A stretch of DNA of 33,530 bases from Butyriboletus loyo (Eukaryota > Basidiomycota > Agaricomycetes > Boletales > Boletaceae). The DNA lies in the NCBI GenBank assembly GCA_038093515.1, contig JBBPSI010000254.1, positions 1 to 33,530 on the forward strand. Direction: 5' to 3'. The notes below the pieces were generated by a model. The model saw only the letters and a program-made list of their open reading frames with translations, searched no databases and was not told the origin of the DNA. A program made the translations under genes and the position numbers. Positions 1 through 19,699 of this stretch are shown in pieces (the stretch's first letter is position 1; every line of letters begins with the position of its first letter).

Positions 1-826
1 TGAGCATTGCTCCTATTGCTCTCCCATTCATAGACTGTAAGTGGCTGGATTTGGAATGAGAATGGTACTGATAAGCATTGCTCCTATTGCTCTCCCATTC
101 ATAGGCTGTAAGTGGCTGGATTTGGAATGAGAATGGTGCTGATGAGCATTGCTCCTATTGCTCTCCCATTCATAGTATGTAAGTGGCTGGATTTGGAATG
201 AGAATGGTGCTGATGAGCATTGCTCCTATTGCTCTCCCATTCATAGGCTGTAAGTGGCTGGATTTGGAAACGAGGAATTTACATCGGAGCAAGCATTGCT
301 CCTATTGCTCTCCCATTCATAGGGGTCGTAAGTGGCTGATTTGGAATGAGAATGGTGCTGATGAGCATTGCTCCTATCGCTCTCCCATTCATAGGCTGTA
401 AGTGGGTGGATTTGGAATAGAATGGTGCTATTGGTATTGCTCCCTGGCTGTTTCCTCCCATTCAGGGCTGTAAGGGCTGGATTTGGAAATGAGAATGGTG
501 TCACTTGAAGCATTGCTCCTATTGCTCTCCCATTCATAGACTGTAAGTGGCTGGATTTGGAATGAGAATGGTGCTGATGAGCATTGCTCCTATTGCTCTC
601 CCATTCATAGCATGTAAGTGGCTGGATTTGGAATAAGAATGGTGCTGATGAGCATCCCTCCTGCTCCTCTCCCTGGATAGCAAGTAAGTGATGTAATATG
701 GATTTGAAAGTGCTGTTAATGAGCTTCCTTCCTACTCTTCCATTGATAGAATGTAAGTGATCTGATGTGGATTTAAAATGAAAATTCTGCTAACAAGTAT
801 TCTCCATGCTGCTCTTTCTTTGGCAG
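1..826 (+). repeat. Tandem ~71-bp repeat of intron plus microexon units
   Basis: About twelve head-to-tail units. The first nine are close to identical (period 71, 71, 71, 76, 72, then 71 again) and those after about 650 diverge steadily. Each unit holds GTAAGT, a GCTGAT that fits the fungal branch-point consensus, a pyrimidine-rich stretch and CATAG, so the repeated unit is a whole intron plus a tiny exon. The window opens in mid-unit, so the array extends to the left. It is not a CRISPR array: no short conserved repeat alternates with unique spacers. Confidence 0.9.
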
Positions 827-1971
827 CATGTATGTGGTCTAATATGAACTCCTGGCCAGAGGCTGTTGCTGATTTGGTTCTGTCCTGTCTGCTTCTATGG
901 CCATTTGGATGCTAGTTTGTGAGTATCTTTGTATGCATGTGAAAATGTTGATTGCCAATTAATTCATGTTTGTTCCTTTTCTTGCTTTCTGGTTAACAGG
1001 AAGTGAGTCATTGACCTGACATTGGAGAAAGAATACAACTTATTTGCTAAATTTACTCTTCCTTCCAGGAGGTACACCACATGATATGTTGTTACAATGT
1101 GTATTACTAATATATGCAACCTCTCATGTTTTCTTTCAAATAGAATGTAAGTGATTTCATTTAGAATTGAAATCTTCATTCTGCTCATGAAATTTATTTC
1201 ATTTCAAAATTTAATATAACCCTATCATTTCATAACTTCATATACTTACATAGCTGGTGAGTATTATCTTGCTACTGTAATAGTTATCATCAGCTATGGA
1301 TTGATATTCCTATAGGATGTAAGTTTATTCTTCCATGCAATATTATCTACATTTATGTATGCTTTATCCACATTTAGAAGGTAAGATATCTATGTGCTCA
1401 TTTAAATTTGTACTCATAATTTGACTAGAGAGTCAGTTTTCAATTTGAAGATCTTTATACTGCTATTGATGTCATGCAGATTGTCACCAACCCTCAGTCC
1501 TCCCTGGTAAATCATTATCATTTGATTATACTATGTATTTCCTACAACAATTTCATCCATTTCAGAGTTCCCTTCAACCAACAGAGGCAAAGACCATGGT
1601 ATGTATGTGCAATCATGGAAATATATTTATTCTATTAACTCTTTATGTATTTCAGCTCAACAAGAGAACCAACACTGAGCTGAGAGAGATTCTGCAACAT
1701 GGCATTGGTAGGTTAATCCATTTTGAATTTTCATAACTTAAGTATTTTTATAGACTGTGTACTACTTCTTCAGTATTCCTTCATTCTGGTCCAAAACAAA
1801 TCTGAAAATCCCTTTGCCTTAGCAGAAGAAAGGTATACAGCATCTGGAATATCTGCCCAGATATCAAAGACACTGGATGAGATCTTATCCAAACATTTTG
1901 CCACCAAATCTATAGATGAAAAGGTGGACCTTGTCATGGACATAATCATGCAGCACCCTTTGTGTAGGTAG
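34..1971 (+). CDS. 3' part of a gene built from tandem 3-nt microexons (unknown function)
   Basis: Partial gene, 5' end outside the window. Nineteen candidate microexons lie between AG and GT at 34, 105, 176, 247, 323 (5 nt), 395, 466 (4 nt), 540, 611, 681, 750, 827, 916, 1000, 1069, 1144, 1254, 1316 and 1378; a possible twentieth is AGA at 1429. Introns are 59-107 nt. Ordinary exons follow: 1480-1506, 1566-1598, 1656-1707 and 1754-1971. The 27- and 33-nt exons are whole codons, and only phase 0 stays open through to the TAG at 1969. All microexons read as sense codons, including the 5+3+4 nt group, which restores frame. An alternative end splices ACT (1754-1756) as another microexon and resumes at 1823, also in frame. 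The C-terminal part is hydrophilic and contains SKTLDEILSKHF; I do not recognise a family. Splicing is inferred from sequence only. Confidence 0.7.
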
Positions 1972-2579: not shown

Positions 2580-2897
2580 TAATTAAGCTTAGCTTGGGGT
2601 GGTGACACTGCACGTACCTCGATGCCAAAGAGATGTCACATGTTTTGTGCTGGTTTTGCGATTGTCACACTGCAAGATACAAATATAATGTCTCAATCTT
2701 GTCCCCACATATTCCTTTAGAGAAGTTTGGTTTTCGAGTGAGATGCACTTACTAGCAATTACATTACAGACCCTCCAGAACTGCAGGATAACTTGTGCAA
2801 CATAGGTTAAGGAACATCAGTGCAGAAGTGCTATTCGATATAATAGCATGGCACTTTTTCAAGTTGCATTGATAGCGGCTGCCTGATGGAAATACAA

Positions 2898-3239
2898 TCA
2901 ATTGATTCCCCTCACATCAGGCAACACTTGTTGGATCATCTCAGAAAGTAGTTCATCAAGGCTCCCTGTGAAAATCTTCTGCTTGAGAACTCGAAGCCTG
3001 GAAAGCAAAGTATGACCTACCTTGTCTCGTTCCCCTTGCGTCGTAAGTATGGCGGTCAATAATTTGGTCCTTGTGCCATTCTTGATCTTGGATAAGCTTG
3101 TCGATGAAGGTCGCTCCTCTGGACCTGTGATCGTCAGTTTGTCATCAGGTGGGGCAGCTTTAGTGCAGCATTTGGACTTTGAGGTGCGGTCCTTGGCAAC
3201 AGCCTGGAGGAGGACGGACGGGCATTCGTCTACAAGCAT
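2898..3239 (-). CDS. Hypothetical protein ORF (weak)
   Basis: A 113-codon minus-strand frame with coding-like composition, hydrophilic and rich in K, S and T, ending in a leucine-rich stretch (SLDELLSEMIQQVLPDV). An intron-like stretch (GTTAAT ... CTTGTAG) sits just upstream on the same strand, ending at about 3229, so this could be the last exon of a spliced gene whose earlier exons I cannot place. No family recognised. A 198-codon frame on the other strand overlaps it, so the strand choice is itself uncertain. Confidence 0.3.
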   Translation of the reverse strand: MLVDECPSVLLQAVAKDRTSKSKCCTKAAPPDDKLTITGPEERPSSTSLSKIKNGTRTKLLTAILTTQGERDKVGHTLLSRLRVLKQKIFTGSLDELLSEMIQQVLPDVRGIN

Positions 3240-4294
3240 TGCAGAAATAAGCTCACAGAAAGAAGCGCAGGTGTCTCAAATAATTAACCTAGTTGTTGAT
3301 AGCATGCATGAATCACTCATCACGATGTTCACTCAATTTCTTTGTCATCGCAAGCGGGAGCAACAACCCAGTACTGAAGAATGGCATTGTCACCATCAAA
3401 CACACACCTGCAAGCATTTATGTCGGGCCCACCTATATTGCTTCTTCTTCTCCATTGAATTCTCCACAAAATGGATTATCGAAACGTGCTCCTCTTCTTC
3501 CATGCCAAGAAGTAAGAAGGTATGGAGCAGTCGGGGCTCCACCGGCCGCCGCGTTGTTGCTAAGGGAGTGTTTTGGCATGTACACATGGCTCATTGCGTG
3601 ATGTGTACGCGAATTTGAGACCAGGAGAGTACGAGTCGGTCACTGGGCATGGACATGAAAATTGGCATGACGCGCTTGAGTTCAGCGACTTTGGCAAGAT
3701 TGAGCGCAAGTTGGGTATGTCAATCAACCTGAAGCGTTGGCGATACACATTCGTAATCAAAAGCCCTCCACAGAGGAGCGTATCACTGGAAAGGTGGTCA
3801 TCGAATTCTTTCGCAAAGATATAGATATAAACGCAAGGACAGCGTCAAGAGCCTGAGCCATTGAATGGTGCAACACCGTGGGAACATGCCAGATTCAGGT
3901 GGCTATCTACACACCACCACGTTCTGCCCAATGTCCTTCCGGGAACTATGCACACACCTTGGCGATCTTCGAGCGGAATGCTTTAGGATCATCAAAATGC
4001 GGAACCTCGACTTTCACTCACGTCCCATTCTGCAAACATAGCCGAACTTGGGGCTCAACTACAAGACGTAGCCGACCCATCATCCAATCAGAACTCTCAA
4101 ATAACCTGCGGTAGAGTAGTCAAGCGATAACGTTACGCCATGCCTTTGCAGATGCCTGGAAACACTCGAGTCTCGGGCGGATCAGCCGGTCTAATCCCCA
4201 TACAAGTGACAGCATCAGACTGTCAATTCTATCTGTGTGAAAATACCCTTCAAAACTCTGCGTAGCGTCTATTCCAGGAGCGCAACTTGATACC
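3240..4294. other. Intergenic stretch without a recognised gene
   Basis: Holds only short open stretches on the plus strand (3573-3824 and 3878-4114) with no recognisable domain. The right end should contain the promoter and 5' UTR of the MFS gene at 4295; no clear TATA box is seen. Confidence 0.4.
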
Positions 4295-6995: not shown

Positions 6996-7468
6996 ATGTC
7001 CGATCCTGGTCCATCTTACGCTCCTGCTCCTGTCGACTATGTCCCTGCCGCCCCCACCTACGACGATCAAACATTGCGTGCCCTCTTCGCGCAGTGGTTG
7101 GAAAAGGATACCCAAGGAGGAATTTCAAAGAAGGTTGCTGACCCAGGAGAATGGGACGGTGACAGAGAAAAGTTCCACCATTGGTGGACCTCCCTCAAAG
7201 TCTGGGTGTCCGTCAACACCTGGAAATCAGACAAGCTCCGTACGGTGGCTGTTCTTAGCCACATTAAGGGCAAAGGCCAGGACTTTTCTCAGCTCGTCCT
7301 GGAGGATTACGTTGTGGAGGAAGAAAGATACATAGATCCTCTCGACAGATCCAAAAGAAAAAAGAAGGATCTGGCATGGCCAGCATGGGACTACCTTCAG
7401 GCCATGATCAGGGGCCACTTCCAGATCAATGTGCTAAGTCACCAAGCACTAAGGAAATTGGCCGCCCT
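6996..7468 (+). pseudogene. Gag N-terminal fragment of a different Ty3-type element, cut by element 1
   Basis: An open frame from ATG 6996 runs straight into the 5' LTR of element 1 and is lost there. It begins with a proline/tyrosine-rich stretch, then FAQWLEKDTQG, WDGDREKFHHWWTSLKVWV and a basic DRSKRKKKDLAWP patch. The tryptophan-rich block, a helix-rich segment and a following YLQAMIRGHFQI fit a retrotransposon Gag capsid domain. It does not resemble the Gag of element 1 closely. The missing C-terminal half is not found on the far side of element 1. Gag identity is inferred from composition and context. Confidence 0.55.
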
Positions 7469-7894
7469 TGTTACGGTAGTGGTATACTTTTTCCATCCAC
7501 TACCACTCGGACTACTTCATTCGCCTAGCTTACAGCTAGTTCCCTTTGAACGGTACCAACCGTTCTAGCTTAGTCATCACTTCCCGCGCACGGACGCACT
7601 TTCCCTCACACTCCGGAATCTTCTGGAATGTTCCTTCCGTACTTGTACTTTCCTTCTCGCGTCTCGATTAGGAACACGGTCTGTGCGCAGACCCCAGTAG
7701 TATAAAGGCTCGGCCTTTCCACCATGTACATTATCTAGTTCTACGCAGCTTCCTGCTAGCAATTAGTATCACTTCCAGACTCTTAGTGTGCGCACTAAGA
7801 CATAGTCTGAGACCCAGCTCAGAAACGCTTAACGAGTCTCGAGGCCACTCCAGAGTGCCTCCTCGCTGTTCAATTGTTAGCGCCCAGCGTAACA
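7469..7894 (+). repeat. 5' LTR of element 1
   Basis: 426 bp, TGTTAC ... GTAACA. Contains the promoter for the element transcript. Matches 14165-14590 with two substitutions, one of them CG in this copy against TG in the other. Confidence 0.97.
7701..7742 (+). promoter_or_regulatory. LTR TATA box and inferred transcript start
   Basis: TATAAAGG at 7701 is followed 32 bp later by ATCTAGTTCT (7733-7742), which is exactly complementary to the primer site at 7897-7906. In the Tf1 mechanism the first bases of the transcript prime reverse transcription, so the start is inferred at about 7733. Confidence 0.65.
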
Positions 7895-8294: not shown

Positions 8295-9290
8295 ATGTCC
8301 GACAAAGGAAAGATCGTCCCCAAAGACTTCTCTGGGCTCAACGAAGACGCCTCACGATGGCTCCTCGCCATGCGTACCTACTTCGCCGCCAACCAAAATG
8401 CATTCCCCGACGACGAGTCCAAAATCAACGCCCTCCTCATGAAAATGAGCGAAGGGAAAGGCAAGACGTTTTCCGAAGGCTGGATGGGCCTTCTCCTAGA
8501 TGGAAACCCTACTCCACGACAAAGGGAGTTCACTACCGTCTGCGAAGATTTTCACAGAGTCTTCCACCCCTTCGACGTAGGAGAGAGCGCTCGCATCGAC
8601 CTGGGAAACTTAAACCAGAATAGAGCCAACAAAAAGGACGGCTACGACACGTACGTCACCGAATTCCAGCTGCTCGCTGCCAAGTCCGGAATCATAGATG
8701 AGAAAGCGCTCATCGAGTGGTTCATTCGCGGTCTCGACCCCCGCCTCGCCGAGTCTGTCCTCTCGTGCGAGAAGCCCCCTACCACGCTTGCCGGATGGGC
8801 AGAGAAAACATCCGCATTCCATGCGCAACACAAGCGCATCGACGACCTCCGCGCCGGAAAACGATACATCCCCACGTTCTCCTCTTCCTCCAAACCCTCG
8901 TCTAACCGAAGGGACCCCAATGCGATGGACGTCGACGCCGTCCGACTTACTCCTGTGCAACGTGCGGAGTACATGAAGCAGAACAAATGCTTCGTATGCC
9001 ACCAAGTCGGATGCCGCTCGAACAACCATCCTCGTTCCCCACGCAATGGACAAAGTCCCAGAGGACCGCCCTCTCGCCCCCCTCGCAACCCTCAGCGCGC
9101 ACGCGCCGCCGTCGTCACGCAACCTGAGCCCAAGCCCTCCCCACTCGTCGACTACCTGTCCGAGTTAAAGGGTCGAGGCACCCAGCAAGAAGATGTCTTG
9201 AACGTCCTCAAGGCATGCTTCAACGAAGACGAAGAAAAGCTGCCCGTCGCAGCAACCAAGGTGGCCGAAGAATGGCCAAAGGATTTTTAG
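8295..9290 (+). CDS. gag: Gag of element 1
   Basis: 331 aa, structural protein that forms the retrotransposon particle and packages its RNA. The ATG is the first ATG after the inferred transcript start. Residues ~1-170 form a Gag capsid region (DFSGLNEDASRWLLAMRTYF, FIRGLDPRLAESVL); a basic proline-rich tail follows. The zinc-knuckle-like motif at residues 232-245 is CFVCHQVGCRSNNH, that is CX2CX4CX4H, with the last Cys and His exchanged relative to the usual CX2CX4HX4C. The same frame stays open upstream back to a TAG at 7902, about 130 codons without any ATG, so the true protein may be longer. It ends with GATTTTTAG, the probable slippage site into pol. Confidence 0.92.
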   Translation: MSDKGKIVPKDFSGLNEDASRWLLAMRTYFAANQNAFPDDESKINALLMKMSEGKGKTFSEGWMGLLLDGNPTPRQREFTTVCEDFHRVFHPFDVGESARIDLGNLNQNRANKKDGYDTYVTEFQLLAAKSGIIDEKALIEWFIRGLDPRLAESVLSCEKPPTTLAGWAEKTSAFHAQHKRIDDLRAGKRYIPTFSSSSKPSSNRRDPNAMDVDAVRLTPVQRAEYMKQNKCFVCHQVGCRSNNHPRSPRNGQSPRGPPSRPPRNPQRARAAVVTQPEPKPSPLVDYLSELKGRGTQQEDVLNVLKACFNEDEEKLPVAATKVAEEWPKDF

Positions 9291-12200
9291 AAAGGAGGGA
9301 AGTTTCGACGTCTTCGCCTCCTCTTGTAATCGCCCCTGTAGTTTTATCGAATCCCAATGCGCAATCAATTCGAGTCCCAGTGTCATTATTCGCGCATAAA
9401 GGGGGACAAATCGTCGACACATTCGCCCTGGTGGACAGCGGCGCTAGCGGATGCTTCATAGATCGGGATCTAGTGAAGCAAAAGAAACTGCCGATGGAAC
9501 GGCTACCCAAACCACTAAGTGCCCAGAACGTGGACGGGTCAAACAACCAAGGAGGAGTCATACGACACAAGGTCACCCTCTCCATCAGAGTTGGAGAAAC
9601 CGAGGAGGAACGGAGCTTCCTAGTCCTCAATATAGGAAAAGAAAACATGATCCTAGGATTACCGTGGCTACGAGAAGCAAACCCGGTAATAGATTGGGCC
9701 ACTGGCCACATCGATCTCCCGGATCAAATCAAGAAGCCCCGACACGACTCCCCTCGGGCAATCGCTCAACGGTACCTGGTACGGTACCTTGACTTGGACC
9801 CAGACTCCAAGATCGCCAAGCTCTGGAAGAAGCGAGTGGACGCTTCAGCACGGGACGCCTACCCTATCAGAAAGGCAACTATCGCAACTGAGATTGCCGC
9901 CCAAGCCGTCAAGGAGAAAGCAGTTCTCCCAACCCCGTTCAAGTCCTTCGCGGACGTTTTTGACAAGAAAAACACTGAGGAACTACCCCCGTCCCGATCT
10001 TTCGATCACGCCATTGACCTCGACAAAGACTTTGTCCCAAAAGTCGCCAAGGTCTATCCCTTGAACCCGAAAGAGTCGGAAGCCTGCAAAGCTTTCGTCG
10101 AAGAACATCTCAAATCGGGGAAGATCACCCCCTCGAAGTCTCCTCAGGCTGCCCCCTTCTTCTTCGTATCAAAGAAGGACGGTTCTCTACGCCCCTGTCA
10201 GGACTATAGGTACCTGAACTCGCATACGGTCAAAAACGCCTACCCTCTCCCCCTCATCTCCGACCTCGTCGACCGTCTCAAAGGGTCCAAAATCTTCACA
10301 AAGATGGATATCCGCTGGGGATACAATAACGTCCTCATCAAGCCGAACGACCGCTGGAAGGCGGCCTTCATCACTCCCCAAGGGTTATTCGAACCCACCG
10401 TGATGTTCTTTGGCCTCTGTAACTCCCCAGCAACGTTCCAGGCTTTGATGGACCATATCTTCGGAGATCTCATGGCAGAAGGATGGTTGATCATTTACAT
10501 GGACGACCTTCTCATCCATTCTGCCACGCCTGCGGAACACGAGGCCCGCACGATCCGCGTTTTGGAGAGACTCAGGGAACACAAACTCTTCCTCAAACTC
10601 GAAAAGTGTTCGTTCGACGCCGAGGAAGTCGAATACCTCGGGATGATGGTCCGAGAGGGACAGGTCAAGATGGACCCGACCAAGTTGAAAGCCATTCGCG
10701 AATGGAACCCCCCGACCTCTGTAAAGGCTGTCAGGTCCTTCATAGGTTTTTGCAATTTCTATCGGAGATTTATCCAGGACTTCTCCCACATCGCAAAACC
10801 CCTCCACGACCTAACCAAGAAGAACTCCCCATGGGCATGGACCCCGGCCTGTGAACAGGCGTTCCAAGCAATCAAGCAGTCGTTCCTACGACAACCTGTC
10901 CTCTCCATGCCCGATGTCACCAAACCGTTCGCCGTCATGACAGACGCCTCACTTACTGCTACTGGAGCGGTGCTTATGCAAAAGGACGTTAACGGCGACC
11001 TCCACCCCTGTGCCTATCTCTCCAAGACGCTCTCGCCAGCCGAGCGCAATTATGATATCTATGATCGTGAACTCCTCGCGGTCATTCACGCATTGGAAGA
11101 GTGGCGACATTACCTGCGAGGTACTGGTCACCAGGTCGAGATTCTCACCGACCATAAGAATCTCACATACTTTCGCCAACCGAATAAGTTGTCTCGTCGA
11201 CAAGCACGTTGGCTCATGTTCTTGCAGGATTTCGACCTGCACTTTCATCACATCCCCGGAACTCAGATGGGCCCCGCAGACGCCCTGTCTCGCCGCGACG
11301 ACGTTGACACTTCCGCCGACAACCAGGAAGTGACTCTCCTCCCAGAAAACCTCTTTGCTCGAAAAATCGACGTCGCCCTCGCAGAGAAAATCGCTGCCTC
11401 CACCCCCAGCGACCCCATGATTAAGAGGTGCATGCAGGCTCTCTATGAGGATTCACCTCTTTTCCCCAAGATGAATGCTGGCGATTGGGACTTTGACGGG
11501 AAAGAATTGTACTTCCGCAAGAAGCGGTATATTCCCGAGGCCGCGCGTGTCGACCTCATCCGATCCTTGCACGAGAGTCCTGCTGGTGGTCACGGTGGTA
11601 TCTTCCGCACCCAGAACATGGTGCAACGAGATTATTGGTGGCCCGGTATGGCTAATTTAGTCCGCCGTTTCGTCTCAGGGTGTGCTGTATGTCAAGCGCA
11701 CAAGGTCAATACCCATCCCACCGTGCCCCCTCTCACTCCCTTAACCAGCGTGGCCTCTCGCCCCTTTGAACAAGTATCAGTTGACCTCATCACCGGCCTT
11801 CCTCCCTCGTTGGGATATGATTCAGTCATGGTCGTGGTAGACCATGGGCTTACGAAGGGGGTAATTTATTCCCCTTGCAACAAGGACATTGATGCGGCAG
11901 GAGTTGCCAAGTTGTTTTTCAAAACAGTTTTCCTTCGTTTTGGACTACACTCTCGCTGCATCTCTGATCGTGGCCCCCAATTCGCGTCCGCCTTCGCTAG
12001 AGAACTTGCAAGGCTCTTAGATTACGACCTCGCTCTCTCCTCCGCGTACCACCCACAGACCGATGGAGAGACGGAACGAGTCAATCAAGAGCTAGAAACG
12101 TACCTCCGGATCTTCTGCGATGGCCACCCGGAACGATGGGCCGAACTCCTCCCTATGGCCGAATTCTCCCATAATTCCATGACTCACTCGTCAACCAACA

Positions 12201-12832
12201 TGACGCCCTTCTCCCTGATGGTCGGCTATGAGCCGAGGTCTTACCCCCCAATTGGAAAGACTTTCCTCCCCGCCCTCGAGTCCAGACTCTCGGAGCTCAC
12301 GGGAGCCCGAACGGAGGCTCTAGAAGCCCACGAAAAAGCACGTCGGTTGATGAAGGAACGGATCTCATCTAAGTTCCGCCCATGGAAGACAGGCGATAAG
12401 GTTTGGCTCGAAGGACGCAACCTTCGACTCAGGTACCCGTCCAAGAAGCTCGCCCCAAGAAGGGAAGGACCGTTCGAGATCGCACAGGTTATATCCCCTG
12501 TGGCGTACAGACTCCGATTGCCACCGACATGGAAGATCCATGACGTCTTCCATGCGTCGCTCCTCACCCCTTATCGTGAAACCGCGGAACATGGTCCGAA
12601 TTTCACAAACCCTCCTCCGGAAGAAATAGACGGAGATGAAGAGTACGAGATCGATCGGATCTTGTCCCATCGCGGCTCGAAGGGACGCCGTCAGTTCCTT
12701 GTGTCCTGGAAAGGATATTCCGCAGCAGAGAACACCTGGGAACCAAACGGGAACCTGGTCCATGCGCAGGCCCTGCTCAAGGCTTATAAACTGCGCCACC
12801 CCAAGGACTTTCCCTCCCCATCTTCGCAGTAA
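9215..12832 (+). CDS. pol: Pol polyprotein of element 1 (PR-RT-RNaseH-IN-chromodomain)
   Basis: Open frame of 1205 codons in the -1 frame relative to gag, overlapping its last 76 nt. It is probably made as a Gag-Pol fusion by frameshifting near 9284 rather than from the ATG at 9215. Protease: VDSGASGCF at residue 73 and LGLPWL near 147. Reverse transcriptase: FFGLCNSPATFQ and YMDD at about 428-431. RNase H: TDAS at 576-579 and [10 protein letters not shown]. Integrase: HHCC zinc domain (His 786, Cys pair near 825) and D857, D918, E954, the D,D35E spacing. A GPY/F-type module (REGPFEIAQVISPVAYRL) and a chromodomain (about 1140-1195, with FLVSWKGYSAAENTWEP) close it. Chromodomains of this type direct integration to heterochromatin in related elements. 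No stop or frameshift is present. Confidence 0.96.
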   Translation: MLQRRRRKAARRSNQGGRRMAKGFLERREVSTSSPPLVIAPVVLSNPNAQSIRVPVSLFAHKGGQIVDTFALVDSGASGCFIDRDLVKQKKLPMERLPKPLSAQNVDGSNNQGGVIRHKVTLSIRVGETEEERSFLVLNIGKENMILGLPWLREANPVIDWATGHIDLPDQIKKPRHDSPRAIAQRYLVRYLDLDPDSKIAKLWKKRVDASARDAYPIRKATIATEIAAQAVKEKAVLPTPFKSFADVFDKKNTEELPPSRSFDHAIDLDKDFVPKVAKVYPLNPKESEACKAFVEEHLKSGKITPSKSPQAAPFFFVSKKDGSLRPCQDYRYLNSHTVKNAYPLPLISDLVDRLKGSKIFTKMDIRWGYNNVLIKPNDRWKAAFITPQGLFEPTVMFFGLCNSPATFQALMDHIFGDLMAEGWLIIYMDDLLIHSATPAEHEARTIRVLERLREHKLFLKLEKCSFDAEEVEYLGMMVREGQVKMDPTKLKAIREWNPPTSVKAVRSFIGFCNFYRRFIQDFSHIAKPLHDLTKKNSPWAWTPACEQAFQAIKQSFLRQPVLSMPDVTKPFAVMTDASLTATGAVLMQKDVNGDLHPCAYLSKTLSPAERNYDIYDRELLAVIHALEEWRHYLRGTGHQVEILTDHKNLTYFRQPNKLSRRQARWLMFLQDFDLHFHHIPGTQMGPADALSRRDDVDTSADNQEVTLLPENLFARKIDVALAEKIAASTPSDPMIKRCMQALYEDSPLFPKMNAGDWDFDGKELYFRKKRYIPEAARVDLIRSLHESPAGGHGGIFRTQNMVQRDYWWPGMANLVRRFVSGCAVCQAHKVNTHPTVPPLTPLTSVASRPFEQVSVDLITGLPPSLGYDSVMVVVDHGLTKGVIYSPCNKDIDAAGVAKLFFKTVFLRFGLHSRCISDRGPQFASAFARELARLLDYDLALSSAYHPQTDGETERVNQELETYLRIFCDGHPERWAELLPMAEFSHNSMTHSSTNMTPFSLMVGYEPRSYPPIGKTFLPALESRLSELTGARTEALEAHEKARRLMKERISSKFRPWKTGDKVWLEGRNLRLRYPSKKLAPRREGPFEIAQVISPVAYRLRLPPTWKIHDVFHASLLTPYRETAEHGPNFTNPPPEEIDGDEEYEIDRILSHRGSKGRRQFLVSWKGYSAAENTWEPNGNLVHAQALLKAYKLRHPKDFPSPSSQ
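9283..9322 (+). promoter_or_regulatory. Probable -1 frameshift site and hairpin at the gag-pol junction
   Basis: The gag frame ends GAT TTT TAG. A Phe tRNA on TTT (9285-9287) can re-pair one base back on TTT (9284-9286), after which TTA GAA opens the pol frame. Two nt after the stop, AGGAGG plus GAAG (9293-9302) can pair with CTTC and CCTCCT (9312-9322), a 10-bp stem with one bulged G and a 9-nt loop. GGATTTTTAGAA recurs at the same place in elements 2 and 3. Confidence 0.6.
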
Positions 12833-12841
12833 CACTCGAAA

Positions 12842-14113
12842 ATGTCCATTTCCCCAGTCGAAAACAACGCCTCCTCTGCTGCCAACAACGACAATGAGAA
12901 CCTTCCCCTTCCGCCGCAACCTCCCGTCCGCTCTTCGCGCCTCCCAGTATCCTCCCGCCGCGTACTGTACGCCGCCGTCCTAGAAAACCCTGTCGCCACC
13001 TACGCCTTGGAGCAACGTATGGACTTTACCGGAGACTATGTCCTCCGCACACTCGCTTCCCTCTACCGCTCCTACGCCCTCGCCCGCACCGTTCACACCC
13101 GTCTGTGCCCAGACAACCAACCACCCGTCTATGCCGCCGCCCTTGAGTCCTCCTTGATGGAGGCTAGGGGCTACACCCTCGATATCCTCCACGCCGAAGG
13201 ATTCGGTTATGTGGTTGATCAGCTCCTGCCAGGTATTCTGGCCCCAGTCCTTCGCCCTATTCTCATCGCGCTTGCTCCTAGGGAGCGGCAATTCTACCTT
13301 CACTCCGCCGACCGCATCGGCTACCTCCGTCCCATGGCTCGCGGCCCCAATCCAGTGCCTCGTCCTCCCCCGGCAAGATCTCCTTCGCCTGTACCTGTTC
13401 CAGCGCCATCCGTCCGAAACTCTCCTGCAACCACGTTGGTAGCAGACACGTCTCGCGAGACTACAGGAGAATCCTTAGAGTCCTTTCGGACCGATGTCGA
13501 CGAGCCCCAGGTCGCTCGTCGACACTCCCCCCTACCGCCTCGTACAGTGCGTCGCCAACCTCGCCAGGCGCTACTCCAGGCCGGAGCTATCCCCGGATCA
13601 GTCACTCTCACCGCCGCAGGACGAAGAATCGCCAATAGAGCAGTCCGTTCCGTCACCCCCCAACCGTCTACCCGACGAGGCACGCCTGCCATCCAGCTCA
13701 TCCCCCACGTCACCACCACCACCGCTACAGCTGGTAGCTCTAATGACTCTTCGTACGGACCCCCGCCCCCCTACCTCTCTGGTCGGGGCACTCGTAATTC
13801 CCCTATCATCGTCGACGATCGATCACCTGACCCCAGCACGAGCGCTGCTCGACCTCGCCTCGTCCGCCCGCAGCTCTGCTTTGAGTGCGGGACCGCCGGT
13901 CACTTTCGCCGGGAATGCCCCAACTACGCATGTCCCTTCTGTCATCGGATCGCCCCTGGTCATATACAGGAGTTTTGTCCAGAGCGCATCTGCGGCCTAT
14001 GTGGAGCCGTTGGCCACATCGTCGCCAACTGCACGTTCCGGGACGACGCGTGGGCAGACCTCCCTGCCGACGATCCTTACGACTACGACTTCAACGAGGG
14101 ATCGTCTCAATGA
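12842..14113 (+). CDS. ORF3 of element 1: triple zinc-knuckle protein in the env position
   Basis: 423 aa, starting 9 nt after the pol stop and in the same frame as pol, so reinitiation or stop readthrough could express it. Residues ~40-150 are helical and partly hydrophobic (LRTLASLYRSYALAR, GFGYVVDQLLPGILAPVLRP). Residues ~165-340 are proline-, serine- and arginine-rich and look disordered. Three zinc knuckles end it: CFECGTAGHFRREC (346-359), CPFCHRIAPGHIQEFC (364-379, CX2CX6HX4C) and CGLCGAVGHIVANC (384-397), then an acidic tail. No signal peptide or clear envelope-type membrane anchor, so it is not an Env protein. A homologous decayed ORF occupies the same place in element 2. Likely nucleic-acid binding; its role in the cycle is unknown. 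Confidence 0.85.
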   Translation: MSISPVENNASSAANNDNENLPLPPQPPVRSSRLPVSSRRVLYAAVLENPVATYALEQRMDFTGDYVLRTLASLYRSYALARTVHTRLCPDNQPPVYAAALESSLMEARGYTLDILHAEGFGYVVDQLLPGILAPVLRPILIALAPRERQFYLHSADRIGYLRPMARGPNPVPRPPPARSPSPVPVPAPSVRNSPATTLVADTSRETTGESLESFRTDVDEPQVARRHSPLPPRTVRRQPRQALLQAGAIPGSVTLTAAGRRIANRAVRSVTPQPSTRRGTPAIQLIPHVTTTTATAGSSNDSSYGPPPPYLSGRGTRNSPIIVDDRSPDPSTSAARPRLVRPQLCFECGTAGHFRRECPNYACPFCHRIAPGHIQEFCPERICGLCGAVGHIVANCTFRDDAWADLPADDPYDYDFNEGSSQ

Positions 14114-14151
14114 GGGGAGCTTTCAAGTAGTGGAGTCGGAGTCTCCACCAT

Positions 14152-14161
14152 GGGAAGGGGG
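14152..14161 (+). other. Polypurine tract of element 1
   Basis: GGGAAGGGGG three nt before the 3' LTR, the expected primer for plus-strand DNA synthesis. Element 2 has AAAGGGGGGG followed by the same TAA before its LTR. Confidence 0.85.
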
Positions 14162-14164
14162 TAA

Positions 14165-14590
14165 TGTTACGGTAGTGGTATACTTTTTCCATCCACTACC
14201 ACTTGGACTACTTCATTCGCCTAGCTTACAGCTAGTTCCCTTTGAACGGTACCAACCGTTCTAGCTTAGTCATCACTTCCCGCGCACGGACGCACTTTCC
14301 CTCACACTCCGGAATCTTCTGGAATGTTCCTTCCGTACTTGTACTTTCCTTCTCGCGTCTCGATTAGGAACACGGTCTGTGCGCAGACCCCAGTAGTATA
14401 AAGGCTCGGCCTTTCCACCATGTACTTTATCTAGTTCTACGCAGCTTCCTGCTAGCAATTAGTATCACTTCCAGACTCTTAGTGTGCGCACTAAGACATA
14501 GTCTGAGACCCAGCTCAGAAACGCTTAACGAGTCTCGAGGCCACTCCAGAGTGCCTCCTCGCTGTTCAATTGTTAGCGCCCAGCGTAACA
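14165..14590 (+). repeat. 3' LTR of element 1
   Basis: 426 bp, near-identical to 7469-7894. It also carries the TATA box and ATCTAGTTCT. Confidence 0.97.
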
Positions 14591-16017: not shown

Positions 16018-19000
16018 AACGGAGGCCTCAATCGACACGAGTCCCCTCCCATTCCATATCATGTGCCCCTGTAATACTAGCTGACTTAGAGAAATGCTCA
16101 ATAAAAGTCTCAGCTCAGTTAATCAATCCAAATAAAGCGCTAAAAATTGTTGAAACCTCCACCCTCATTGACTCTGGAGCAGATGTCTCATGCATTGACT
16201 GGGACTTCATCAAAAAACATCAACTACCTCGAGAATGACTCCCCACCCCCATTCCTGTATGAAATGTCAATCAAACAAGAAACAAAAATGGCGACATCTG
16301 ATTCACCACCTCCCTCTATGTCAAAATAGGAGATGTGGTACAGAAAACAAAATTCTATGTCATGCATTGTGGCAAAGAAAACACTTTCAATCAGGCTCCC
16401 CTGGTTGAAAGCAAGCAACCCCATCATTGACTGGAAAAAGCAGACCATTACCATCAATGAATCAAAAGACAAATCCCTAGACCTATATTTCTCACATACG
16501 TCGAAACAAGGGACCTATCTCTCAAAGAACTCAAAACCAGAAAAGAAGTTCAACATTCCTGGACATATCAACATCGACTATGTTCAACAAGAAAAGATCT
16601 TCGACTTCTGCAAGTACCAACTCCCCAAAGCATTCACAGAAAAGGCCAAACAACAATACTCTCTCAATCAAGTACTTAAGAAATGTGTTTGGTACTTTCC
16701 AAATACCCCTGAGGCAAAACAAATTCGTGCCTTCACCACCTCCACAAAAATAGCACAGGAAGCTGAACGAAACAAACTAAAGCCAACCCTTCTGAAAGAG
16801 TATGAAGAATTCAGTGAAATCTTCGCAAAAGAAGCCACATATCATGTACCCCCAGCCTGACCATATGACCATGTGATCCACCTCAATGAAACATTTGTCC
16901 CGAAAGTCTCAAAGATCTATCCATTGAACCTGGAAGAGAGAAAGGCAACAGAAGACTTTTTAGAAGAAAACCTGTGAACAGGAAAAATCCAACCCTCTAA
17001 ATCCCCACAAGAATCACCCTTCTTTTTCATCAAAAAGAAGGATGGAGGACTTCACCCCTGCCAAGATTACAGATATGTTAATGAACATACAATCAAAGAT
17101 GCATACCCCCTTCCCCTAATATCCAACCTCGTTGATAAACTTAAAGATGCCAAGGTCTTTACCAAGTTTGACGTTCGATGGGGATACAACAACGTACAAA
17201 TCAAGAATGGAGACCAATGGAAAGCCGCCTTCATCACACACAAAGGACTCTTTGAACCAACAGTAATGTTTTTTGGACTGTCCAACTCTCCTCCCACATT
17301 CCAAAGGTTTATGAATGACTCATTCAGGAACCTCATCGCAGAAGGATGGCTTGTCATTTACATGGATGACATCCTCATCTTCTCCCCTGACAAAGAAACC
17401 CATCGGGAAAGAACCTGACAAGTCCTCCAACAAATGAAGGAACTTGATCTATGTCTCAAACTAGAAAAATGCAATTTCACCACAAAGGAAGTTGAATACC
17501 TTGGAATGATCATTACACCAGGACAGGTAGCAATGGACCCAGTAAAGTTGAAAGGAATTTCGGAATGGCCAACACCCCAAAAGGTCAAAGATGTGTGATC
17601 CTTCCTTGGATTCACCAACTTCTATCAACAATTTATTCCCCATTATTCTGATATTGCCCGACTTCTCCTGGATTTGACAAAGATGACGCAAGCATGGGAA
17701 TGGCTCGAACGTCAACAAATTGCCTTCACCACCCTCAAGAATATATTCCTCTTGGAACCAGTCCTCACCATGCCTGACCTAGCCAGACCCTTCACAATAA
17801 CCACTGATGCTTCAAAACACGCCTCAGGAGGAGTCCTTTTGCAGACTGATGCCAATGGAGAATGGTACCCCTGTGCCTATCTTTCTCAAACCTTCTCCCC
17901 AGCTGAACGAAACTATGATATCTATGATTGAGAACTCCTTGCAGTAATCAGAGCCCTGAAAACATGGTGCCACTATCTCCAAGGATCTCAATACCCAGTA
18001 AATGTCTTTACCGATCACAAGAACCTTACATACTTCCAACAACTGCAGAAGCTGAATCGATGTCAAGCACAATGGCTTCTAGACCTTGTGGACTTTGATC
18101 TAAAGATGACCCATGTACCAGGAAAGGATCTCAGCCCCTGATGCGTTATCTTGACGACCCGACCTCATCCCTTCCACTGACACTGATAATGATGATGTCA
18201 CCCTCCTTTCCACCACCCTCTTTGCCAACCTCATCGACACTGAACTACGAGATCACATCTCTTCATCCTCCTCTTCTGACCCCCTTGTCCTCGATTCCCT
18301 CCAAGCAATGGAAGGAACAATTCCCCAGAAATTCAGATCTTGACTTTCTGATTGGAAATTTGACACCAGCATCCTTATGTATCAAGAGCGGGTCTACATC
18401 CCTGCAGACCTTCGCAAAACTGTGCTTGAACAACACCATGACCACCTGACAGCAGGCCATCCAGGATACCTGAAAACCCGTCAACTGGTCACTTCTGAAT
18501 GCTGGTGGCCTGGTCTTGCCACTTTCATCCGAAAATATGTTGAAGGATGCGCAACCTGTCAACAGAACAAAGCCAATACTCACCCAACGACCCCCCCCTT
18601 GACTCCAATCCCCTCCTCTGCCTTGCAGCCATTCCAACAGATCTCCTGCAATCTCATCACCGATCTCCCTCCGACAGCCAATGGCTTTGATACCCTATTG
18701 GTTGTGGTCGACCATGGGCTTACTAAGGGGGTAATTCTATGCCCTACCAAGAAAACCGTGGACTCCTCGGGAATTGCTTCTCTCTTTTTATTGAAAGTAT
18801 ATGCCAGATTTGGATTATATGACAAAATAATCTCTGACAGAGGTCCTCAGTTTGCCTCTGCTTTTGCAAAAGAACTCGGAAAGATCCTAGGGTACAACCT
18901 CTCCCTCTCAACAGCATACCACCCCCAGACGGATGGAGAAACAGAGAGGGTTAACCAGGAAGTTGAAATATACCTTCGCATCTTTTGCGGAAATAACCCA

Positions 19001-19699
19001 TCCACCTGGGCAGATAACATCACCCATGCCGAATTTACACACAATCACCGCCCCCATTCGGTCACAGGGAAATCTCTGTTCTTCTTAATGATGGGATATG
19101 AACCCCGTCCTTTTCCCACCATTATCTCTGAAACGAACCTTCCAGCTGTCGAAGAACGTTTGAAACAACTCACAGCAGCACAAAGTGAAGCACTAGCAGC
19201 CCATGCCCTTGCCCAACAGACGATGAAATCTCGAAACACATGCTCCTTCTCTCCCTTCTCAAAAGGTGATAAAGTTTGGCTAGAAGCAAGAAACCTTCAT
19301 TGACAAATTGAGAACCCAAAATTTGCCCCAAAGAGAGAAGGCCCATTCGTTATCATCAACACCCTATCCCCTATCACATACAAGCTCCGACTCCCCAAAA
19401 CATGGAAGATTCACGATGTATTCCATGCTTCCCTCTTATTGCCCTATCGTGAAAATGACATTCATGGCCCGAATTTCCCTAAACCACCCCCTGACCTTAT
19501 CGGTGGAGAAAAAGAGTTTGAAGTAGAAGCCATTTTACGACACAAAGGACCTCCCAATTGCCGCCAGTTCCTGATCAAATGGAAAGGATATCCCACTGCT
19601 GACAACTCATGGGGATCCGAAAAGAACCTCAACAATGCCAAACAGTTGTTGAAAGATTATATTAAGGACCACCTCCATGATTTCCCCCCTTCTCAGTGA
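16011..19699 (+). pseudogene. pol: Pol of element 2, broken
   Basis: Entered by the same -1 shift at TTTTTAG as in element 1. Protease LIDSGADVSCID, reverse transcriptase with an intact YMDD (about 17361), RNase H (TTDASKHASGG; LTYFQQ), integrase HHCC (AGHPGYLKTRQLV, GCATCQQNK) and core (SDRGPQFASAF, YHPQTDGETERVNQE), and chromodomain (FLIKWKGYPTADNSW) can all be followed. Eleven in-frame TGA codons sit at 16236, 16260, 16299, 16858, 16975, 17416, 17596, 17929, 18152, 18341 and 19301. Two frameshifts move the frame near 16390 and 18140. The first integrase aspartate reads Asn (SCNLITDLPP), a change that fits CGAT to CAAT. Confidence 0.93.

What the first reader, a model, noticed from the sequence alone, without database searches (positions are those of the whole stretch)
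34..1506. A gene region made of about twenty consecutive 3-nt exons
Seen directly: at 17 of 19 sites in a row the pattern is (C/T)AG, exactly 3 nt, GT, separated by 59-107 nt of intron-like sequence with branch-point-like CTRAY and pyrimidine tracts. From position ~830 rightward the intervening sequences no longer resemble each other, yet AG-NNN-GT persists at 827, 916, 1000, 1069, 1144, 1254, 1316 and 1378. Chance or simple repeat expansion does not explain conserved 3-nt spacing in diverged copies; selection on splicing and reading frame does. The array leads in frame into ordinary exons. Long runs of single-codon exons are to my knowledge very unusual; the nearest analogue I know is the micro-exon genes of schistosomes, which have longer symmetric exons. 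Whether this is new for fungi I cannot tell.
Basis: partly seen in the sequence, partly recalled or inferred. Interest (0 to 1): 0.92.

Follow-up and report, generated by a model that had tools for sequence, protein, structure and literature searches.

The report
Hypervariable single-codon exon arrays in mushroom
In a bolete-like mushroom, a family of GTP-binding proteins appears to build a highly variable stretch of its sequence from dozens of three-letter exons, each coding one amino acid and each separated by its own intron, which looks like a new way for a gene to diversify one residue at a time.

Summary
In detail: 17 of 19 sites in window 34-1380 are AG-3 nt-GT. They belong to a GTPase gene family with about 17 array pieces in this genome. 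With exon lengths of 1-12 nt allowed, an unbiased chain over 17 sequences (two overlapping) of 512 exons as exactly 3 nt; controls are flat. Paralog L012 reads in frame, without internal stops, through 7 ordinary exons, 41 single-codon exons and 4 ordinary exons, with 51 of 51 introns GT-AG. Named relatives among the best 120 protein hits are Boletales.

Unexpected: codon positions 1 and 2 of the central exons are hypervariable while position 3 and the introns are nearly fixed. Of 103 unit pairs with no difference in 128 flanking bases, 83 carry different codons. One exact 72-nt intron occurs 25 times beside many different codons. Ordinary exons show purifying selection.

Best reading: an exon-intron minisatellite of single-codon exons that recombines without losing frame and encodes a hypervariable linker, probably a recognition surface. 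No RNA of this species was available. Ten open-access literature searches listed no comparable description.

The parts
34..36 (+). 3-nt exon ACT (T)
   Evidence: AG-NNN-GT chain
105..107 (+). 3-nt exon GCT (A)
176..178 (+). 3-nt exon TAT (Y)
247..249 (+). 3-nt exon GCT (A)
323..327 (+). aberrant 5-nt exon GGGTC; with 466-469 it sums to 9 nt
395..397 (+). 3-nt exon GCT
466..469 (+). aberrant 4-nt exon GGCT; together with 323-327 it leaves the frame unchanged
540..542 (+). 3-nt exon ACT (T)
611..613 (+). 3-nt exon CAT (H)
681..683 (+). 3-nt exon CAA (Q)
750..752 (+). 3-nt exon AAT (N)
827..829 (+). 3-nt exon CAT (H)
916..918 (+). 3-nt exon TTT (F), same codon in 9 aligned loci
1000..1002 (+). 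3-nt exon GAA (E); GCA, GAA or ACA in the 9 loci
1069..1071 (+). 3-nt exon GAG (E); GAG, AGG or AAG in the 9 loci
1144..1146 (+). 3-nt exon AAT (N), same codon in 9 loci; L017 has a GC donor here
1254..1256 (+). 3-nt exon CTG (L), same codon in 9 loci
1316..1318 (+). 3-nt exon GAT (D), same codon in 9 loci
1378..1380 (+). 3-nt exon AAG (K); AAG, GAG or AGG in the 9 loci
1429..1431 (+). possible further 3-nt exon AGA with weak donor GTCAGT, unsettled
   Evidence: AGA or AGT with the same donor in 9 of 11 sequences
1480..1506 (+). ordinary exon IVTNPQSSL, phase 0
1566..1598 (+). ordinary exon SSLQPTEAKTM, phase 0
1656..1707 (+). ordinary exon LNKRTNTELREILQHGI(D)
1754..1971 (+). last exon, C-terminal domain ..YSFILVQNKSENPFALAEERY..QHPLCR and stop; similar in the longer Boletales homologs
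1..778 (+). tandem exon-intron minisatellite, period 69-71 nt

Best explanation
The window holds the 3' part of one member of a multigene family of P-loop GTPases in a Boletales fungus. Between the GTPase part (ending ..WFPHTK) and a C-terminal domain, the gene is a head-to-tail array of units of about 75 nt: one 3-nt exon in phase 0 plus one intron of 49-109 nt. Each unit adds exactly one residue to the protein. Microexons at both ends of the array (GL(G)(R)EKFLIQDDF on the 5' side, AQEDFARNLD(R/K/E) on the 3' side) are largely shared between paralogs. The central ones are hypervariable at codon positions 1 and 2 and mostly NNT, which can never be a stop codon. The near-identical introns act as recombination substrate and splicing frame: unequal exchange adds, deletes and shuffles single residues without touching the frame, while diversifying selection keeps codons different. 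The product is a GTPase carrying a linker whose sequence and length differ between copies, most likely a recognition surface (allorecognition or defence type). Shown by computation: array, 3-nt length, phase, paralogs, hypervariability, purifying selection on two ordinary exons. Inferred: that the spliceosome includes every unit in this species, that selection rather than a targeted mutator makes the diversity, and the recognition role.
For: Unbiased chain: 493 of 512 exons are 3 nt over 17 sequences; reverse-complement control 6 of 83, shuffled control 23 of 292. L012: 371 codons in 7 ordinary 5' exons, 41 microexons, 4 ordinary 3' exons, 520 residues, no internal stop, 51 of 51 introns GT-AG. 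Pfam MMR_HSR1 24.9 bits, cut-off 21.9. Introns: 450 examined, 41 different lengths, GTAAGT in 339, CTRAY in 333. L017 has AAT|GCAAGT where the other 8 loci have AAT|GT; GC is a known minor donor (recalled). Hypervariability: position entropies 1.58 and 1.77 bits against 0.07 for position 3 in 118 core units chosen from 384 by flank similarity; 83 of 103 pairs with identical 128-nt flanks differ in codon, position 3 differs in 0 of 1287 pairs with up to six flank differences; one exact intron 25 times in 5 loci with 8 codons before and 6 after. Ordinary exons: pN/pS 0.40 (last exon, 9 loci) and 0.55 (a GTPase exon, 8 loci). Homologs on short contigs (P0003: 438 aa on 1529 nt; P0004, P0009, P0059, P0060 similar) have open frames across positions where this genome has ordinary introns, so they are probably cDNA (inference). 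They carry differing peptides between WFPH and the C-terminal domain, and P0003 reads FANLDR-AVIPSS where L012 reads FARNLDR-VVTNPQSS.
Against: No RNA from this species. Skipping the whole array as one long intron would also stay in frame. Units that would shift the frame if included occur in L010 (2 nt), L011 (1 nt), L013 (1 nt), L017 (2 nt, next to sequence that looks unrelated) and L021 (5 nt); L011 also has a TAG in a GTPase exon. Several arrays run into contig ends (window, C158, C75, C395, C111, C152, C233), so unit order and number may be misassembled. Codon positions 1 and 2 differ more (16% and 18%) than introns (9.9%) even in the 3' part of the array, because 3 of the 7 codons there vary, so purifying selection on codons is seen only at the other four. 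Position 3 is more constant than the introns, which protein-level selection alone does not fully predict. 117 of 450 introns lack CTRAY.
Confidence: 0.8

Rival explanations
1. One long intron with decoys: the array is a minisatellite inside a single long intron whose repeated unit happens to contain AG-NNN-GT; the mRNA joins WFPHTK directly to VVTNPQ.
For: Joining the flanking exons directly also keeps the frame (lengths). Some annotated Pisolithus homologs lack a linker (P0077, P0083, P0094), although these are gene predictions.
Against: Exactly 3 nt is kept in units with only 57-69% intron identity; splice-site columns are more conserved than introns; no stops in 474 units; codon-like pattern of variability; probable cDNA homologs carry linker residues, and P0003 resembles the shared 3' microexons.
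Confidence: 0.08
2. Targeted diversification: a mutator or template-switch process writes new dinucleotides specifically at positions 1-2 of each unit during array expansion, with little role for selection.
For: Codons differ between units whose 128 flanking nt are identical (83 of 103); position 3 is frozen (0 of 1287 pairs).
Against: Codon use is non-random at residue level: TCT, ACT, TGT and AGT are absent among 118 core units while GCT, GAT, CAT and CCT dominate; ACT, TCT and TGT do occur outside that core set. Four of seven units at the 3' end keep the same codon in nine loci. A run P P G F occurs twice in L013 with its codons kept, but an ungapped comparison of the two blocks gave 65 and 112 differences in 450 nt for two registers, so a recent block duplication is not shown.
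Confidence: 0.1
3. Introner-like insertion: copies of a mobile intron were inserted at every codon boundary of an ordinary coding stretch, so the introns are alike because they are recent and the codons differ because they are the old coding sequence.
For: Near-identical introns next to different codons.
Against: Insertions exactly every 3 nt and always phase 0 are not expected. The 52 DNA matches of window 1-1000 (the window itself included) lie on 15 contigs, all with pieces of these arrays. The 3' microexons share positions between diverged subfamilies. Chain length differs between paralogs, 40 to 58 units among L010, L011, L012, L013, L014 and L022, the unsettled last unit included where called.
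Confidence: 0.04
4. Decaying pseudogene family in which former exons are drifting.
For: Several copies look broken: frame-shifting units, a stop in L011, and two halves about 8 kb apart on C8.
Against: L012 is fully open; pN/pS below 1 in two ordinary exons; no stop codons in the arrays.
Confidence: 0.04

Closest known systems
Micro-exon genes (MEGs) of schistosomes
   Same: Runs of very short in-frame exons; proteins at the host-parasite interface that evolve fast (title and start of abstract of PMC4350168 in the listing; a term search in it found nothing; exon sizes recalled).
   Different: Here nearly every array exon is one codon, the units are tandem exon-intron repeats, the protein is a GTPase with a charged N-terminus, and the organism is a fungus.
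Aphid bicycle and megacycle genes
   Same: Many small exons of one phase, more than 100 microexons in megacycle (passages of PMC9168663).
   Different: Bicycle internal exons are phase 2; single-codon exons or near-identical introns are not mentioned in the passages seen.
Podospora anserina hnwd (het-d, het-e, het-r) genes
   Same: Fungal STAND NTPase proteins whose repeat arrays recombine, change number and evolve in concert, giving variable recognition (abstract and outline of PMC2873952).
   Different: There the repeat is a coding WD repeat (unit length recalled as about 42 residues); here the coding part is 3 nt and about 96% of the unit is intron.
PRDM9 zinc-finger minisatellite
   Same: Near-identical repeats with hypervariability at few codons (search listing only; residue positions recalled).
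   Different: No introns inside the array; several variable codons per 84-nt coding repeat (recalled).
Single 3-nt microexons (RPS24) and fungal microexons (Trichoderma Xlr2)
   Same: Exons of 3-30 nt can be spliced in (listing; passages of PMC11121469).
   Different: Single or few cassette exons, not arrays of dozens. The Trichoderma paper says that knowledge of microexons in fungi is relatively limited (passage).
G-domain (MMR_HSR1-type) proteins of Boletales
   Same: Sequence homology of the GTPase part and, in the longer members, of the C-terminal domain.
   Different: 87 of 122 held homologs with a WFP-H/K/N/Y/F motif end within 30 residues after it; whether they have arrays could not be seen, as only their proteins were available.

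Membership tests
MMR_HSR1-type GTPase family (PF01926) | Profile match above the gathering score | tested here: met
   L012: 24.9 bits against 21.9; the window copy lacks this part (contig start)
MMR_HSR1-type GTPase family (PF01926) | P-loop GxxxxGKT | tested here: met
   GRANAGKT invariant in the 18 aligned proteins
Schistosome MEG | Runs of tiny exons with lengths divisible by three | tested here: met
   493 of 512 exons are 3 nt
Schistosome MEG | Signal peptide, secreted product | tested here: inconclusive
   L012 starts MKALKQRIRRLQSG, charged by eye; no predictor was run
Schistosome MEG | Homology to MEG proteins | tested here: not met
   Among the 120 listed of 467 homologs, those with an organism named are fungi of genera placed in Boletales; Butyriboletus, Leucogyrophana, Chiua and Pisolithus were looked up, the others are recalled
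hnwd-like recognition genes | Tandem repeats homogenised in sequence with hypervariable codons | tested here: met
hnwd-like recognition genes | NACHT and WD40 domains | tested here: not met
   Neither is reported for either part of L012 at E up to 1
hnwd-like recognition genes | Controls incompatibility between strains | not testable with these tools
   needs genetics
Introner elements | Near-identical introns in many unrelated genes | tested here: not met
   The 52 matches of window 1-1000 lie on 15 contigs, all with pieces of these arrays (repeats are lower bounds there). The listings of array motifs were cut within C149; up to there they name only C6, C8, C46, C75, C111 and C149
Spliceosomal microexons | Inclusion in mature mRNA | not testable with these tools
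   No RNA of this species; only indirect support from homologs on short contigs

The most novel reading that the evidence does not exclude
A codon-by-codon diversity generator: because every exon is one in-frame codon, any subset of the central units (up to some tens per gene) can be skipped or rearranged without loss of frame, and NNT codons cannot become stops by changes at positions 1-2. One gene could therefore yield very many linker sequences, by splicing within one individual as well as by recombination between generations, working as a hypervariable recognition repertoire for a mushroom.
Probability: 0.2. Interest if true: 0.97.

Novelty: categorically new. Interest (0 to 1): 0.92.

Why it matters
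It would be an extreme case for exon definition: dozens of consecutive one-codon exons in one transcript, which tests how a spliceosome can use sites 3 nt apart. It would also be a gene architecture in which introns are the repeat and the recombination substrate and the exon is the variable letter, so that residues are gained, lost and shuffled one at a time. 87 of 122 held homologs with the WFP motif end within 30 residues after it, as expected if gene callers stop at such an array, so a hypervariable gene family may have been overlooked in Boletales (inference).

Tried and rejected
A region-limited homolog search with array plus C-terminus (residues 360-520 of L012) found nothing. Distant GTPase loci of the same genome (C20, C31, C218, C209, C385) were fetched to look for a one-exon form of the linker; no run of AG-NNN-GT units is seen in them, the homologs matched mainly their GTPase part, and they did not inform. 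The fold comparison of a homolog model (P0003, mean pLDDT 78.3) gave only weak matches, the best by E-value a bacterial dynamin-like protein with TMq 0.30; nothing is built on it. A first attempt to join L012 exons was off by one at the end of exon 6 and by two at the start of exon 7 and gave a broken frame; the corrected chain was run.

The last unit of seven chains (AGT, for example L012 5051) has an unusual donor, GTCAGT. It is counted among the 493 but left out of the L012 gene model; the window counterpart at 1429 lay outside the span given to the chain (1-1400). One search found it in 9 of 11 sequences (not in L022, L023), so it is unsettled rather than rejected. L015 overlaps L016 and was left out. 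L023 shares 1454 identical nt with L024: it is counted and left out of the counts. The chain for L024 runs past the true array after about 4200 and adds spurious exons to the 512 (25 of 35 are 3 nt there). One search counted unit pairs across all loci, so they are not independent; no p-value is given. Whether other gene families have such arrays was checked only by two genome-wide patterns whose listings were cut. The idea that neutral point mutation explains the codons was dropped.

Full report
The observation. The window is the first 33.5 kb of contig C254 of a 30.3-Mb genome. The left part is a 71-nt tandem repeat, so 3-nt spacing there could be simple inheritance. In the diverged part, 780-1400, a relaxed pattern still matches 8 times against a shuffle mean of 0.5 and a maximum of 4. 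A twentieth unit at 1429-1431 with a weak donor is possible.

Paralogs. Searching the genome with window 1-1000 gives 52 matches, the window itself included, on 15 contigs, the others at 66-92% identity. I fetched 17 regions and later 10 more. With a strict pattern and exon lengths 0-12, 3 nt is the most frequent length in each of the 18 sequences examined, in L021 only narrowly (6 against 5). A dynamic-programming chain that treats lengths 1-12 alike, run on 17 sequences, of 512 exons as 3 nt, against 6 of 83 on the reverse complement and 23 of 292 after shuffling. L023 and L024 overlap by 1454 identical bases, and the tail of the L024 chain is spurious, so the numbers are approximate. Genome-wide, three-fold AG-NNN-GT motifs occur 231 times against 11 for the pattern read backwards.

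Gene model. In paralog L012 (contig C159) seven ordinary exons from an ATG encode 371 residues with an MMR_HSR1-type GTPase match (24.9 bits, cut-off 21.9). This is followed by 41 three-nt exons read as GLGEKFLIQDDFRIYHRYHAAPYPAAAARHAQEDFARNLDR, and four ordinary exons. The whole chain is 520 residues without internal stop, and 51 of 51 introns are GT-AG. The introns of the array are phase 0, so each exon is one codon. In the window the same four 3' exons lie at 1480-1506, 1566-1598, 1656-1707 and 1754-1971. The window copy has 5-nt and 4-nt units that together keep the frame.

Conservation of the sites. Over the last seven exons of the called array in nine loci, splice-site columns differ in 4.1% of comparisons, other intron columns in 9.9%, and gaps touch 64 of 415 intron columns but 0 of 21 exon columns. 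Exon position 3 differs in 0 of 252 comparisons, but positions 1 and 2 differ in 16% and 18%, because three of the seven codons vary (A/E/T, R/K/E, R/K/E) while TTT, AAT, CTG and GAT do not vary. Between L012 and the distant subfamily L022 the introns are 57-69% identical (shuffled 50%), differ in length, and all 7 exons stay 3 nt. One paralog uses a GC donor where the others use GT. None of 474 three-nt exons is a stop, 11.8 expected under independence of positions. Of 450 introns, 339 start GTAAGT and 333 contain CTRAY.

Hypervariable codons. Among 439 strict units, pairs with at least 94% identical flanks (3685 pairs) differ at codon positions 1 and 2 in 57% and 59% of cases, at position 3 in 1.4%, and at flanking positions in 2.9% on average, 21% at most. 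In 118 core units, chosen from 384 by flank similarity, the two highest-entropy columns of 55 are codon positions 1 and 2 (1.58 and 1.77 bits); position 3 has 0.07. With 64 nt on each side compared, 83 of 103 pairs without any flanking difference have different codons; over 1287 pairs with up to six flanking differences position 3 never differs. One exact 72-nt intron occurs 25 times in 5 loci, preceded by 8 and followed by 6 different codons. Pairs are not independent, so no p-value is given. Codon use in the core set is GCT 26, GAT 19, CAT 17, CCT 15, TAT 11, CGT 10, CTT 7 and others below 4 of 118, with TCT, ACT, TGT and AGT absent, though ACT, TCT and TGT occur outside it, ACT twice in the window. 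Ordinary exons show the opposite: pooled pN/pS 0.40 for the last exon in nine loci and 0.55 for a GTPase exon in eight. Window and contig C158 align at 97.4% over 6457 nt; pairing their units by order from the 3' end (by hand), 8 of 19 codons differ, 7 of them among the 11 units at 34-752. One of these, CAA against CAT, is a position-3 difference.

Relatives. The best protein match is a Butyriboletus model (67% identity), followed by Imleria, Chiua, Boletus, Rhizopogon, Pisolithus and Suillus, so the host is a Boletales fungus, probably near Boletaceae (inference; four genera looked up). The Butyriboletus model ends 14 residues after WFPHT. 87 of 122 held homologs with a WFP-H/K/N/Y/F motif end within 30 residues after it, many Suillus ones in similar tails such as VRRRLIQSDD, as expected if gene callers run into the first array intron (inference). 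A Pisolithus model (P0132) repeats a stretch of at least 14 residues at a distance of 28 residues in its tail, as a read-through of tandem introns would give (inference; in the 181 proteins held, this and an unrelated repeat in P0059 were the only ones reported). Homologs on contigs little longer than their reading frames (P0003, P0004, P0009, P0059, P0060) are probably spliced transcripts; between WFPH and the C-terminal domain they carry short, mutually different peptides, and P0003 resembles the 3' microexons (FANLDR against FARNLDR). This is the nearest thing to RNA evidence, and it comes from other species whose exon structure is unknown.

Mechanism. The simplest account has three steps: tandem units recombine unequally, introns are homogenised, and diversifying selection keeps the codons different. 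A similar logic is described for the hnwd genes of Podospora (abstract and outline of PMC2873952 seen) and for PRDM9 (listing only). The frame cannot be lost when a whole unit is gained or lost, because each adds 3 nt, and NNT codons cannot become stops by change at positions 1-2. A recognition role is inferred from the pattern only. A targeted mutator is not excluded.

Results against. Frame-shifting units exist in L010, L011, L013, L017 and L021, and L011 carries a stop in a GTPase exon; these copies may be dead or may skip the unit. Arrays of the window, C158, C75, C395, C111, C152 and C233 run into contig ends, so their order and length are uncertain. The near absence of position-3 change is stronger than neutral expectation and suggests a splicing constraint as well. 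The whole array could be skipped in frame.

Literature. Only the open-access library was searched. PMC11121469 (passages) says that the characterisation of microexons in fungi is relatively limited.

Noticed in passing
window 8295-12832: Open reading frames of a Ty3-type retrotransposon (gag match PF03732; long pol-like ORF 9215-12832) lie downstream of the gene.
   Followed up: no
window 6996-7568 and 13494-14264: Two ORFs share the same C-terminal peptide (VTVVVYFFHPLPLGLLHSPSLQLVPFERYQPF), perhaps the two LTRs of that element.
   Followed up: no
window 16333-19303: Pieces of a second retrotransposon-like element (ORFs, by eye).
   Followed up: no
L017 and L018 (contig C8): A 5' half and a 3' half of an array gene lie about 8 kb apart on the same strand, as if an insertion had split the array.
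   Followed up: partly
L016 around 2472-2650 and L021 around 1094-1270: Both arrays are preceded by the same pair of pattern hits 174-175 nt apart (TGC, CCT), perhaps the same mobile element next to two arrays.
   Followed up: no
L024 reverse complement 2741-4194 and L023 1-1454: 1454 identical bases: contigs C75 and C395 probably overlap and were not joined.
   Followed up: no
L022, L024 (contigs C6, C75/C395): A second subfamily whose array codons often end in A (CAA, GAA, GGA, AGA) as well as T (TTT, CTT).
   Followed up: partly
L012 about 1785-1978: A possible further microexon (AG-AGA-GTATGT) and a zero-length AG-GT site lie in the intron before the first called array exon (by eye).
   Followed up: no
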